Assembly: GCF_000284095.1 (NCBI RefSeq) | Contig: NC_017068.1 | Coordinates: 372,001-436,000, forward strand | From: Selenomonas ruminantium subsp. lactilytica TAM6421 | GTDB taxonomy: Bacteria; Bacillota; Negativicutes; Selenomonadales; Selenomonadaceae | Direction of reading: 5' to 3' | DNA length: 64,000 nucleotides | Shown here: positions 6,240 through 61,377 of the stretch, piece by piece | How the letters are laid out: each line of letters starts with the position of its first letter | Numbering within the stretch: the stretch's first letter is position 1 | Translations under genes and position numbers: made by a program | Notes under the pieces: model-generated | Database searches by the model: none | What the model was told of the DNA's origin: nothing | The model's input: the letters and a program-made list of their open reading frames with translations, nothing else

Positions 6240-6248
6240 GTTGGCAAA

Positions 6249-6281
6249 AGCAGCTCGACATGTTGGTCGGGCTGCTTTTTT
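6249..6281 (+). terminator. terminator of pheA-aroF
   Basis: AGCAGCTCGAC (6249-6259) pairs with GTCGGGCTGCT (6266-6276) and is followed by a T run, just after the aroF stop and just before the 607-bp element. Confidence 0.85.
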
Positions 6282-6283
6282 AG

Positions 6284-6890
6284 AAATTGCAGTTTGTAGA
6301 TGCGAGACTAAACTCTTTTGTTACAGCTCAGTGGGGCGGCGGTGGGAATACTTTTCCGCCGCTGCACTAAATGACCCGCCAGCAGAAGTACGCATCTTCC
6401 AGTAACCTGCGCCGGGCAAGTCCGGCGGCGCGTCCATCAACGAAGCATCCAGCAAATGCTGTTTGCGGGCCAGCCTTCACTTCGTTCAGGCAGTCGTTCC
6501 GCCGGCGGAAAAGCATCCCCACCGCCACCCAGCGTTACGTTTGTCAATGCTGCTATGTTCCGGCTGGAGGATACAAGCACATCGATGTTCTTGTTACGGG
6601 AGAACCGGGTTCGTGCCGATTGCAAAAATCGTGGCTGGGGGCGAACGGGGGAGTGCTTTTTCTGTGGGAGCGACTGTCTGAGCGCAGCGAAGACCGGCCC
6701 GAGGCAGGCAGTTACCAGAAAGCACGCTGAAAGACGCGCCGCCGGTCTTGCCCGGCGCCATCTGGCTAAACAGCTCTAAAATTGCCGAGAGGGTCGTTTT
6801 AGCGGAAACAGAAAAAGTACTCCCCCGTGAACCCCTGACTGCGTATGAACAGGATACCTTCAGCACGAACGCGCCGACAAACTGCAATTT
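6284..6890 (+). repeat. 607-bp palindromic dispersed element, copy 1
   Basis: It starts AAATTGCAGTTTGT and ends with the exact inverse ACAAACTGCAATTT. The centre is ACATCGATGT at 6579-6588, within a few bases of the geometric midpoint. The left half and the reverse complement of the right half share a 26-bp block beginning GCGCCGGGCAAG with one mismatch, and a GGGCC..CCTTC..CAGGCAGTCG block. No transposase or convincing gene lies inside; open frames here also occur in the other copies and look like by-products of composition. It fills the gap between aroF and the MFS gene. Confidence 0.85.
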
Positions 6891-19979: not shown

Positions 19980-20226
19980 AAATTGCAGTTTGTCAGTGCG
20001 AGCCTGAACGCTTTTGTTACAGAGCAGTGGGGTGGCGGTGGGAATACTTTTCCGCCGCTGCACTAAATGTCCCGCCAGCAGAAGTACGCATCTTCCAGTA
20101 ACCTGCGCCGGGCAAGTCCGGCGGCGCGTCCATCAACGAAGCATCCAGCAAATCCTGTTTGCGGGCCAGCCTTCACTTCGTTCAGGCAGTCGTTCCGCCG
20201 GTGGAAAAGCATCCCCACCGCCGCCC
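19980..20226 (+). repeat. 607-bp palindromic element, copy 2, left part
   Basis: It begins AAATTGCAGTTTGT and matches copy 1 along its length up to the CCACCGCC region, where an insertion sequence interrupts it. The last 9 bp (20218-20226, CCGCCGCCC) recur just beyond the insertion as a target-site duplication. Left and right parts, with one duplication removed, total 606 bp. Confidence 0.85.
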
Positions 20227-20280
20227 GAGGCCACTGAAAAAGTCTATATATAACGATAACCGTGGATGGATGTGATGAAA

Positions 20281-20310
20281 TTCGCATTCATCCACGGTTT
20301 CTAGTATAAT
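20281..20310 (+). promoter_or_regulatory. transposase promoter
   Basis: TTCGCA (20281-20286), 18-bp spacer and TATAAT (20305-20310). It overlaps an inverted repeat (AACCGTGGATG with CATCCACGGTT, about 20259-20301) that may limit read-in or bind a regulator. Confidence 0.5.
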
Positions 20311-20337
20311 GGAGCCATCAACACTTGGAGGTTCAAC

Positions 20338-21813
20338 ATGTTACGGAATAGCCAGCAACTCAAGCTTAGTGAATTTACAGCCATCTATGATCGTCTCATT
20401 CCCAAAAATCATTTTCTGCGAAAATTTAATACGCTTGTAGATTTTTCTTTCATTCAAGATGAACTGGAGCATAAATATTGCCTGGATAATGGCCGTAATG
20501 CTCTTTCTCCCATAATGCTGTTCAAATATCTGCTGTTAAAGGTTATCTACAATATGTCGGATTCCGATTTAGTTGAACGTAGCCGATATGATATGTCATT
20601 TAAATATTTTCTGGGACTCCGCCCTGAAGATGAAGTAATCCACCCTTCTACCTTAACCAAATTTCGTAAACTCCGCTTACAAGATGAGAATATTCTGGAT
20701 TTGTTACTCAAGAAAAGTATCCAAATTGCTTTGGAGAACAAAGTAATCAAGAGCAAACGAATTATTGTAGATGCTACGCATACTAAGGCTCGCTATAACC
20801 AGAAATCTGCCTATGAGCGGTTGTTGGAACAAGCCAAGCTATTGCGCAAGACGGTTTACCAGACAGATTCTCCCCAAAAGAAAGAAAGGTTTCCCAAGAA
20901 AGTAGAAAATGGCTCACTGGTGGATGCGCTGGAATATTGCCGACAGTTAATCAATACAATAGAAAATGACAGCCAGATGGCAGAAATGCCTGCCATACAG
21001 GAGAGGCTGAACTTGCTCAAAGAAACGGTCGAAGACCATGCAGAACATTTGGCCACTTCCAAAGATGAGGACGCCCGAATCGGGCATAAAACAGCAGATA
21101 CATCCTTCTTTGGCTATAAGACACATATTGCCATGACCGATGAACGGCTGATTACAGCTGCAGTAGTAACCAGTGGCGAGCGCAGTGACGGGGAACAATT
21201 AAGAACATTAGTTGAAAAAACCAGAGCAGCCGGACTGGAAGTGCAGAGTGTCATCGGTGATACCGCATACTCCGGCAAAGAAAATCTTAAATTTGCTGAA
21301 TCGAAAGATGCGCCAGAAAAATCCTTTGAACTGATTGCCAAATTGAATCCTGTTATATCCAACGGCTCCCGTGTTGAAGGCAGCAATGGTTTTTCTTTCA
21401 ACAAGGATGCGGGAATGTTCGTATGCCCTGAAGGGCATATGGCCATCCGCAAAGCAAGAACTGGACGCAAAAACAATAGAACAAATCAAAGAATGAGCTA
21501 TTATTTTGACATTGAGAAATGTAAGCAATGCCCACATTGTGGAACCTGTTATAAAGAAGGTGCCAAAAGCAAGATTTATTCCGTTACGATAAAATGCGAT
21601 TTACACAAGAAACAACAGGAGTTTCAGGAAACAGAATATTTTAAGGAACAGGCTAGAAAGCGTTATATGATAGAAGCTAAAAATAGTGAGATTAAACACA
21701 GGCATGGGTATGACATAGCGTCATCCGCAGGCCTGATTGGTATGGAATTACAAGGAGCCCTAACGCTTTTTGTAACAAATATGAAACGAATTGTGAAAAT
21801 GATGGAGAAATAA
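20338..21813 (+). CDS. IS1182-family DDE transposase
   Basis: A full-length 491-residue transposase. The N-terminal DUF772-type domain (about 50-125, including SPIMLFKYLLLKVIYNMSD) precedes a DDE catalytic domain with acidic residues in IIVDATHTKARY, VIGDTAYSGKENL and the IEAKNSEIK region. A cysteine-rich insert (CKQCPHCGTC, about residue 398) may bind zinc. No frameshift or stop interrupts it, so it may be active. ATG 20338 follows GGAGGTT. Its codons are more AT-rich than the flanking genes, as expected for a mobile element. Confidence 0.93.
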   Translation: MLRNSQQLKLSEFTAIYDRLIPKNHFLRKFNTLVDFSFIQDELEHKYCLDNGRNALSPIMLFKYLLLKVIYNMSDSDLVERSRYDMSFKYFLGLRPEDEVIHPSTLTKFRKLRLQDENILDLLLKKSIQIALENKVIKSKRIIVDATHTKARYNQKSAYERLLEQAKLLRKTVYQTDSPQKKERFPKKVENGSLVDALEYCRQLINTIENDSQMAEMPAIQERLNLLKETVEDHAEHLATSKDEDARIGHKTADTSFFGYKTHIAMTDERLITAAVVTSGERSDGEQLRTLVEKTRAAGLEVQSVIGDTAYSGKENLKFAESKDAPEKSFELIAKLNPVISNGSRVEGSNGFSFNKDAGMFVCPEGHMAIRKARTGRKNNRTNQRMSYYFDIEKCKQCPHCGTCYKEGAKSKIYSVTIKCDLHKKQQEFQETEYFKEQARKRYMIEAKNSEIKHRHGYDIASSAGLIGMELQGALTLFVTNMKRIVKMMEK

Positions 21814-21840
21814 AGCCCTAATAACGGGGGAGATATACAA

Positions 21841-21889
21841 AATCGTCGCAGAATGATGATAAAAATATCATTCTGCGACGATTTTTTTT
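21841..21889 (+). terminator. transposase terminator
   Basis: A perfect 17-bp stem (21841-21857 with 21867-21883) is followed by eight T residues, inside the right end of the insertion sequence. Confidence 0.9.
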
Positions 21890-21937
21890 GTGGATAATTT
21901 GCCAGTCGTATGAAATGGATAGTTTTTCAGTGGCCTC

Positions 21938-22305
21938 CCGCCGCCCAGAGTTACGTTTGTCAATGCTGCTATGTTCCGGCTGGAGGATACAAGCACATCG
22001 ATGTTCTTGTTACGGGAGAACCGAGTTCGTGCCGATTGCCAGAAACGTGGCTGGGGCGAACGGGGGAGTGCTTTATCTGTGGGAGCGACTGTCTGAGCGC
22101 AGCGAAGACCGGCCCGAGGCAGGCAGTTACCAGAAAGCACGCTGAAAGACGCGCCGCCGGTCTTGCCCGGCGCCATCTGGCTAAACAGCTCTAAAATTGC
22201 CGAGAGGGTCGTTTTAGCGGAAACAGAAAAAGTACTCCCCCGTGAACCCCTGACTGCGTATGAACGGGATACCTTCAGCACGAACGCACCTACAAACTGC
22301 AACTT
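21938..22305 (+). repeat. 607-bp palindromic element, copy 2, right part
   Basis: It begins with the second target-duplication copy (21938-21946), continues through the central ACATCGATGT and ends ACAAACTGCAACTT, one base different from the other copies. It shares the GTCTGAGCGCAGCG variant with copy 1; copies 3 and 4 share a GCCTGAGCG..AGCG variant. Confidence 0.85.
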
Positions 22306-22310
22306 ATAGA

Positions 22311-22343
22311 AAACGTCCGTTGGCATTTTGCCAGCGGACGTTT
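22311..22343. terminator. bidirectional hairpin terminator
   Basis: AAACGTCCGTTGG (22311-22323) pairs with CCAGCGGACGTTT (22331-22343). It lies downstream of the molybdopterin oxidoreductase on the minus strand. Confidence 0.65.
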
Positions 22344-50607: not shown

Positions 50608-51214
50608 AAATTGCAGTTTGTAGATGCGAGCCTAAACTCTTTTGTTACAGCTCAGTGGGGCGGCGGTGGGAATACTTTTCCGCCGCTGCACTAAATGTCC
50701 CGCCAGCAGAAGTACGCATCTTCCAGTAACCTGCGCCGGGCAAGTCCGGCGGCGCGTCCATCAACGAAGCATCCAGCAAATGCTGTTTGCGGGCCAGCCT
50801 TCACTTCGTTCAGGCAGTCGTTCCGCCGGCGGAAAAGCATCCCCACCGCCACCCAGAGTTACGTTTGTCAATGCTGCTATGTTTCGGCTGGAGGATACAA
50901 GCACATCGATGTTCTTGTTACAGGAGAAACGGTTCGTGCCGATTGCCAAAAACGTGGCTGGGGGCGAACGGGGGAGTGCTTTTTCTGTGGGAGCGACTGC
51001 CTGAGCGTCAGCGAAGGCCGGCCCGAGGCAGGCAGTTACCAGAAAGCACGCTGAAAGACGCGCCGCCGGTCTTGCCCGGCGCCATCTGGCTAAAAAGCTC
51101 TAAAATTGCCGAGAGGGTCGTTTTAGCGGAAACAGAAAAAGTACTCCCCCGTGAACCCCTGACTGCGTATGAACGGGATATCTTCAGCACGAACTCACTC
51201 ACAAACTGCAATTT
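50608..51214 (+). repeat. 607-bp palindromic element, copy 3
   Basis: Same orientation as copies 1 and 2, with both 14-bp terminal repeats exact. The centre ACATCGATGT is near 50904-50913. Its right end overlaps the last codons of the GT9 gene and supplies the stop codon. Nothing gene-like lies in the rest of 50521-51198. Confidence 0.88.
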
Positions 51215-60768: not shown

Positions 60769-61377
60769 AAATTGCAGTTTGTGAGTGAGTTCGTGCTGAA
60801 GGTATCCCGTTCATACGCAGTCAGAGGTTCACGGGGGAGTACTTTTTCTGTTTCCGCTAAAACGACCCTCTCGGCAATTTTAGAGCTGTTTAGCCAGATG
60901 GCGCCGGGCAAGACCGGCGGCGCGTCTTTCAGCGTGCTTTCTGGTAACTGCCTGCCTCGGGCCGGCCTTCGCTGGCGCTCAGGCAGTCGCTCCCACAGAA
61001 AAAGCACTCCCCCGTTCGCCTCCCAGCCACGATTTTGGCAATCGGCACGAACCCGGTTCTCCCGTAACAAGAACATCGATGTGCTTGTATCCTCCAGCCG
61101 GAACATAGCAGCATTGACAAACGTAACTCTGGGTGGCGGTGAGGATGCTTTTCCGCCGGCGGAACGACTGCCTGAACGAAGTGAAGGCTGGCCCGCAAAC
61201 AGCATTTGCTGGATGCTTCGTTGATGGACGCGCCGCCGGACTTGCCCGGCGCAGGTTACTGGAAGATGCGTACTTCTGCTGGCGGGACATTTAGTGCAGC
61301 GGCGGAAAAGTATTCCCACCGCCGCCCCACTGAGCTGTAACAAAAGAGTTTAGGCTCGCATCTACAAACTGCAATTA
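60769..61377 (-). repeat. 607-bp palindromic element, copy 4 (inverted, inside the rnf operon)
   Basis: The element lies in the opposite orientation to copies 1-3: it opens on + with the end that closes the others. The central ACATCGATGT is near 61074-61083. The last base of its terminal repeat differs. It occupies nearly all of the rnfA-rnfB gap, leaving 67 bp before rnfB. Confidence 0.88.

What the first reader, a model, noticed from the sequence alone, without database searches (positions are those of the whole stretch)
6284..6890. Dispersed 607-bp non-coding element with 14-bp terminal inverted repeats, four copies in 64 kb
Seen directly: copies at 6284-6890, 19980-22305 (606 bp once the insertion sequence and one target duplication are removed), 50608-51214 and 60769-61377 (inverted). 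Ends are AAATTGCAGTTTGT and its inverse. No transposase is encoded and open frames inside differ between copies. The size is nearly constant and boundaries are sharp, as for a MITE or a retained regulatory element, but I see no clear target-site duplication. Each copy lies immediately downstream of a gene's 3' end. I do not know a described family of this form, which makes it the best candidate for an undescribed system here.
Basis: partly seen in the sequence, partly recalled or inferred. Interest (0 to 1): 0.85.

Follow-up and report, generated by a model that had tools for sequence, protein, structure and literature searches.

The report
Giant palindromic structured repeat of Selenomonas
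A 607-bp non-coding repeat, present about 26 times on this Selenomonas chromosome, is a pair of back-to-back copies of a folded 200-base unit found only in this bacterial family; its copies are overwritten and flipped in place by recombination, which makes it a new and unusually large variant of the small palindromic repeats known from other bacteria.

Summary
The four copies are real and belong to a family of about 26 on this chromosome (17 near-full, 6 split by an insertion sequence, 3 shortened). The 14-bp ends are the tips of one 607-bp imperfect palindrome (about 77% identical to its own complement). It consists of two divergent copies of a ~200-nt unit whose stems are kept by compensatory changes. 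A covariance model finds the unit in 26 of 380 sampled Negativicutes genomes, all Selenomonadaceae: single, tandem or as divergent pairs. Rfam has no match.

At orthologous sites in two relatives (flanks 83-98% identical) the element is no closer to its ortholog than to other copies, and its orientation is random. Deposited 'plasmid' pSR1 is a chromosomal circle made by a crossover inside two direct copies. Copies are therefore homogenised and inverted in place, most simply by ectopic homologous recombination.

No target duplication, cognate transposase or Y1/RAYT transposase was found here. Most detected flanking hairpins sit 0-9 nt from an end and share one sequence. I read it as a new, giant REPIN/BIME-like structured repeat. 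What first spread it, and whether the unit acts as RNA or hairpin DNA, stays open. A plain MITE explains little of this.

The parts
6284..6890 (+). Element copy 1, full length (reference copy)
6322..6536 (-). Unit A of copy 1 (structured unit, read outward on the minus strand)
   Evidence: covariance model R2; genome position 378322-378536
6579..6588 (.). Central palindrome ACATCGATGT between the two units of copy 1
   Evidence: conserved in both half alignments
6633..6847 (+). Unit B of copy 1 (read outward on the plus strand)
   Evidence: covariance model R1/R2; genome position 378633-378847
6246..6279 (.). Terminator-like hairpin 4 nt from the left end of copy 1 (sequence departs from the common hairpin consensus)
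19980..22305 (+). Element copy 2, split at element positions 239-247 by an IS1182-family insertion sequence
20018..20232 (-). Unit A of copy 2 (runs a few bases into the insertion sequence)
   Evidence: genome position 392018-392232
20227..21937 (+). IS1182-family insertion sequence inside copy 2 (transposase ORF 20338-21813), with a 9-bp target duplication CCGCCGCCC at 20218-20226 and 21938-21946; not part of the element
22048..22262 (+). Unit B of copy 2
   Evidence: genome position 394048-394262
22311..22343 (.). Hairpin of the common element-associated type (AAACGTCCGTTGGC...GCCAGCGGACGTTT) 5 nt from the right end of copy 2
50608..51214 (+). Element copy 3, full length
   Evidence: genome 422608-423214
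50646..50860 (-). Unit A of copy 3
50956..51171 (+). Unit B of copy 3
60769..61376 (-). Element copy 4, inverted orientation
   Evidence: genome 432769-433376
60812..61027 (-). Unit B of copy 4 (element inverted)
61125..61339 (+). Unit A of copy 4 (element inverted)

Best explanation
A new family of composite interspersed repeats. SHOWN: each element is an inverted (divergent) pair of a ~200-nt unit whose stems are maintained by compensatory substitutions; in the genomes sampled the unit is confined to Selenomonadaceae; the ends AAACTGCAATTT are nearly invariant; at shared chromosomal sites the element's sequence is homogenised within a genome and its orientation is random between related species; two direct copies have recombined inside the element to release a 4.7-kb chromosomal circle, deposited as plasmid pSR1. 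INFERRED: the palindrome is a recombination hot spot (it folds on single strands, breaks, and is repaired from another copy), so ectopic gene conversion spreads variants and, because the element is nearly symmetric, flips it. The copies first spread as non-autonomous mobile repeats through an unidentified trans-acting enzyme that recognises the folded unit and/or the conserved ends, and that places or keeps the element beside a specific terminator-like hairpin. It thus works like a giant REPIN/BIME: a structured repeat kept alive by recognition of its fold plus recombination, not by a gene of its own.
For: Inverted-dimer anatomy and palindrome. Covariation with shuffle and slide controls. Family-restricted distribution; single, tandem and divergent-pair arrangements. 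Homogenisation at orthologous sites. Inversion at 8 of 15 site comparisons. Crossover between element positions 112 and 296 in pSR1. Conserved ends. Adjacent hairpin. Palindrome-provoked, SbcCD/RecA-controlled rearrangement is known in E. coli (PMC3315005).
Against: No mobilising enzyme was identified. Only one crossover is directly mapped; gene conversion itself is inferred from sequence patterns. G005 copies are less homogeneous (84.3%) than those of G000 and G006. Several orientation comparisons rest on half elements at contig ends of draft assemblies. Near-absolute conservation of the 12-bp ends suggests that a protein reads them, which pure homologous recombination does not need.
Confidence: 0.55

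Rival explanations
1. Site-specifically inverting or exchanging cassette: a recombinase acts on the near-palindromic ends AAACTGCAATTT, inverting the element and exchanging it between sites.
For: The ends are the most conserved part of the element; orientation is random at fixed sites while junctions stay the same.
Against: The one mapped crossover (pSR1) lies inside the element at 112-296, not at the ends. No recombinase associated with the element was found. Presence of 14-bp identical inverted ends does not by itself show such an enzyme.
Confidence: 0.15
2. Host-serving structured RNA gene or 3'-UTR element in many copies, kept alike by gene conversion as rRNA genes are; the adjacent hairpin is its terminator.
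For: Covarying fold; G-U over A-C excess on the outward strand; constant length; many sites shared between species; terminator-like hairpin at the end.
Against: Copy number varies from 0 to ~35 between species of one genus; some genomes lack it altogether; no promoter was recognised at the centre by eye; no expression data are available.
Confidence: 0.15
3. Classical MITE: an internally deleted derivative of a DDE-type insertion sequence, moved in trans by that IS.
For: Dispersed, non-coding, sharp inverted ends, ~26 copies, AT-rich insertion sites.
Against: No target duplication; no element with the same ends carrying a transposase; constant length and covariation at high divergence.
Confidence: 0.08
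4. True REP/RAYT system: units are outsized REPs moved by a Y1 (RAYT-type) transposase.
For: Same logic of single, tandem and inverted-pair palindromic units in intergenic regions.
Against: No Y1 transposase in G000 (10 contigs) or G004 (1 contig), which hold about 26 and 35 elements, while G002, G018 and G021, with one unit or none, have one; units are ~200 nt rather than 20-40 bp.
Confidence: 0.04

Closest known systems
REP / BIME / REPIN repeats (RAYT-associated; PMC2817692, PMC3733652)
   Same: Intergenic palindromic units occurring singly, in clusters and as inverted pairs; many copies per genome; restricted to related species; compensatory changes; used as insertion-sequence targets (PMC1525189).
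   Different: Unit ~200 nt and pair 607 bp instead of 20-40 bp; conserved 12-bp ends; no Y1/RAYT transposase in two element-rich genomes; REPs carry a GT(A/G)G head (PMC2817692), which I did not look for here.
Stem-loop repeat families without known transposase (e.g. those catalogued in PMC2267715; bcr1 of Bacillus cereus, from memory)
   Same: Interspersed, intergenic, common predicted secondary structure, possible function at RNA level.
   Different: Inverted-dimer architecture, complete homogenisation and in-place inversion at shared sites, and an associated hairpin; whether any catalogued family shares these was not examined.
MITEs (review PMC10969869)
   Same: Short, non-coding, dispersed, inverted ends.
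   Different: No target duplication, no parent element found, fold conserved by covariation over the whole element.
Group IIC introns (from memory: insert beside transcription terminators)
   Same: Structured, RNA-like sequence without target duplication lying immediately beside a terminator-like hairpin.
   Different: Symmetric inverted ends, hairpin on either side, and no Rfam group II match even at E 10.

Membership tests
MITE | Target-site duplication on insertion | tested here: not met
   All-offset scan of 27 copies and inspection show none; a very short duplication inside the conserved AATT cannot be excluded
MITE | Ends shared with an autonomous transposon | tested here: not met
   End 14-mer with up to 1 mismatch in own genome, exact 12-mer in G004 and G014: no transposon-sized pair; other genomes not scanned
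MITE | Terminal inverted repeats, no coding sequence, dispersed | tested here: met
REP/BIME/REPIN | Palindromic units, single and as inverted pairs, intergenic, many copies | tested here: met
REP/BIME/REPIN | Cognate Y1 (RAYT) transposase in the genome | tested here: not met
   PF01797 absent from G000 and G004, present in element-poor G002, G018, G021
REP/BIME/REPIN | Unit size of 20-40 bp | tested here: not met
   Unit ~200 nt
Known structured RNA family (Rfam 15) | Match to a covariance model | tested here: not met
   None at gathering score in the window; only chance-level matches at E up to 10 for the element
Structured RNA (any) | Base-pair covariation beyond controls | tested here: met
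   95.5% paired vs 82.1% shuffled and 40-46% slid; 160 both-side cells vs 55
Structured RNA (any) | Strand asymmetry (G-U tolerated, A-C not) | tested here: inconclusive
   48:12 on union of folds; strand-neutral 28:2 and 52:32 in the two main helices vs ~1.2:1 elsewhere
Structured RNA (any) | Transcription in vivo | not testable with these tools
   No transcriptome data available

The most novel reading that the evidence does not exclude
The unit is an undescribed, family-specific structured RNA read outward across each element end into the flank, serving in trans as the guide or recognition RNA of a recombinase or nuclease that moves, exchanges and inverts the elements: an RNA-dependent mobile cassette without an enzyme of its own.
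Probability: 0.1. Interest if true: 0.92.

Novelty: new variant of a known kind. Interest (0 to 1): 0.6.

Why it matters
It is a tractable natural case of concerted evolution plus in-place inversion of dispersed non-coding repeats in a bacterium, at sites that can be matched between related species. It adds an undescribed covarying structured unit to the Selenomonadaceae, supplies a physical record of recombination between copies (pSR1), and indicates that a deposited 'plasmid' is a repeat-mediated chromosomal circle. If the fold proves to act as RNA, it would give a new RNA family tied to genome rearrangement.

Tried and rejected
Rfam at gathering score and at E 10: nothing. Target-site duplications by all-offset scan: a weak diagonal signal, no real duplication on inspection. 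Autonomous partner by end sequence in G000, G004 and G014: none. RAYT/Y1 transposase: absent from G000 and G004. Phages: no match; plasmids: only pSR1 is a real match. Weak hits in two genomes of another genus (L129, L130) are 23-25 bp matches that I take as chance. Group II intron, considered because of terminator adjacency: rejected (no Rfam match, symmetric ends). The end-to-end 607-nt hairpin as the conserved fold: rejected in favour of two local unit folds, because the genus-wide consensus keeps the local stems. Spread of the IS1182 copies by conversion: rejected because they sit in both orientations at the same stem position. More empty sites besides L003: looked for in 12 further regions, mostly not syntenic on both sides or filled. 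Papers on the element or on pSR1 replication: none found in the open library.

Full report
WHAT WAS CHECKED. The genome holding the window is 3.63 Mb in 10 contigs; the chromosome-sized contig is 3,003,680 bp. From memory that size fits Selenomonas ruminantium subsp. lactilytica TAM6421; this was not verified. On that contig there are 17 near-full-length copies (93-98% identical to the window copy), 6 copies split by an insertion sequence and 3 copies of about 275 bp that lack the middle (about element positions 145-456). None lies on the other nine contigs. The 14-bp end with up to one mismatch occurs 44 times, against none for the reversed control, and all but one of these are at the elements.

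ANATOMY. The element is an imperfect palindrome over its whole length: aligned with its own reverse complement it is 71-82% identical, and full copies are 596-612 bp in every genome sampled, although sequences from different clades are only about 60% identical. It is two divergent copies, A on the minus strand and B on the plus strand, of one unit of about 200 nt, around a central ACATCGATGT. Each unit folds as a long basal stem, a short stem, a small hairpin and a further stem closing a large loop. On 32 units, 95.5% of cells are standard pairs versus 82.1% after shuffling and 40-46% when the partner is slid; 18 of 32 pairs show changes on both sides; the covariation score is 0.409 versus 0.175; no shuffle reaches the observed value of any of these three. 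So the fold, not only the sequence, is under constraint.

RNA OR DNA HAIRPIN. If the fold acts as RNA, G-U pairs should be tolerated on the transcribed strand and A-C should not. On the union of folds from both strands, G-U outnumber A-C 48 to 12 on the outward strand. A strand-neutral count gives 28:2 in one main helix (its diagonal includes a few cells of a second stretch) and 52:32 in the basal stem, against about 1.2:1 in the other, chance helices. This favours RNA on the outward strand but does not settle it, since a few pairs inherited by many sequences carry most of the counts.

DISTRIBUTION. By DNA similarity, 16 of 22 genomes of the genus match; one of these is a single 31-bp match. 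A covariance model finds the unit in 24 of 189 genomes of the family, and a broader model in 26 of 380 genomes of the class, all in one family, 5 of 102 genera. Outside the main group the unit occurs singly, in direct tandem, and as divergent pairs with other spacings. In one relative, G020, about 27 single units were found; five inspected ones sit inside a repeat of about 700 bp. Rfam has no match, phages none, and plasmids only pSR1.

FIXED SITES, MOVING CONTENT. Flanks of 11 of the G000 copies were matched to element-bearing sites in two relatives, G005 and G006. Flanks are 83-98% identical and the junctions coincide nearly to the base at the sites inspected closely, so the sites are shared. 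Yet the element at a shared site is no closer to its G000 ortholog than to the other G000 copies: the ortholog ranks anywhere from 1st to 16th of 16. Within-genome identity is 95.1% in G000 and 92.6% in G006 (84.3% in G005), versus 81-86% between these genomes. Orientation is flipped at 8 of 15 site comparisons: L001, L003, L011, L013 against G005 and L010, L011, L015, L016 against G006. Several of these rest on half elements at contig ends, but the L016 comparison with G006 is a complete element with both flanks assembled. At one site (L003) five other genomes lack the element, which points to insertion in the G000/G005 lineage. The copies therefore exchange sequence and direction while staying in place.

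A RECORDED RECOMBINATION. The deposited 4,692-bp circular plasmid pSR1 of S. ruminantium (NC_002139.1) carries two radical-SAM genes, a hypothetical gene and a HAMP-domain gene, and no recognised replication gene. It matches a chromosomal contig of G006 at 99.7-100% between a partial and a full copy of the element, in direct orientation and 4,690 bp apart. Its element is a hybrid: diagnostic bases up to position 111 match the full copy and those from 297 on match the partial copy, so the crossover lies between 112 and 296. This looks like an ordinary homologous crossover inside the element, not one at the ends. It supports ectopic recombination between copies as the agent of homogenisation. 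That an interrupted palindrome provokes SbcCD- and RecA-controlled rearrangement is known in E. coli (PMC3315005, abstract seen); applying it here is inference.

ENDS AND HAIRPIN. Over 165 distinct ends in the genus the sequence AAACTGCAATTT is conserved at 86-100% per position, and conservation drops sharply just outside it. No target duplication is seen. Of 60 ends with a detected hairpin in 120 nt of flank, 49 have it beginning 0-9 nt from the end; shuffled flanks give 2.3 hairpins in all. Most share the consensus AAAAGYCCGYTGACA...TGTCARCGGRCTTTT. In the window and in about 500 kb of related loci this hairpin type was found only beside elements, apart from two hits that look spurious; those loci were chosen around elements, so that sample is biased. 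Genome-wide, the exact matches to its arm in G000 (7 sites) and G004 (9 sites) all lie beside elements when compared with the coordinates; two looser hairpins in G000 stand alone, and among the listed matches paired arms are nearly absent from the genomes without elements (the list was cut off). The hairpin either travels with the element or is its preferred neighbour. It stays put when the element flips.

MECHANISM. Most likely these are non-autonomous structured repeats that once spread through an unidentified enzyme recognising the unit and/or the ends, and that are now maintained and inverted by ectopic recombination promoted by their palindromic form. Shown: family, fold, shared sites, homogenisation, inversion between species, one mapped crossover. 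Inferred: breakage at the folded palindrome, gene conversion as the main route, past mobility in trans. I looked for an enzyme and did not find one: no transposon-sized pair of such ends in G000, G004 or G014, and no Y1/RAYT transposase in G000 or in G004, which has about 35 elements.

COMPARISON. In how it works it resembles REP/BIME/REPIN repeats (PMC2817692), which also occur singly and as inverted pairs, are species-specific, and are targets of insertion sequences (PMC1525189). It is not a member: unit size differs several-fold and the defining transposase is missing. It is close in kind to other stem-loop repeat families without a known transposase (PMC2267715). It fails two MITE tests (duplication, parent element). 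Hence 'new variant of a known kind'. No paper on this element was found in the open library; that library lacks most subscription journals, so an earlier description cannot be excluded.

Noticed in passing
L199 (NC_002139.1) and L107 (G006:C49:8500-17000): The deposited plasmid pSR1 is a circle of ordinary chromosomal genes bounded by one element and has no recognised replication gene; whether it truly replicates, and whether the element could act as an origin, is unexplained.
   Followed up: partly
window 20227-21937; L018-L027: An IS1182-family insertion sequence (copies 99.9-100% identical where compared) sits at the same stem position (239-247) of the element in five copies, in both orientations, and near the mirror position in the other unit in a sixth: it appears to target the unit's stem.
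   Followed up: partly
G004 contig 1 (291213-291757, 388240-388764, 512240-512681 and others): A second, weaker-scoring set of ~195-nt units in divergent pairs with other spacing, probably a sister subfamily.
   Followed up: no
L117 (G003, orthologous to the L004 site) and the left flank of L006: About 800 bp at the L004 site of G003 and a stretch beside L006 share motifs such as AATACYTTTCCTTCGC and look like another palindromic repeat family.
   Followed up: no
G062 contig 5 at 573111-576254 (L167): Units in direct tandem at a regular ~223-bp spacing, an array form not seen in the window's genome.
   Followed up: no
G000 contigs C2-C10: No copy lies on the 0.63 Mb outside the chromosome-sized contig, although a uniform spread would put about four there.
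   Followed up: no
L148 (G187), left of the unit: The single unit is followed by imperfect repeats of about 85-90 bp containing GTGCAAACCAACTGTTCCTCGGCGAGC-like sequence.
   Followed up: no
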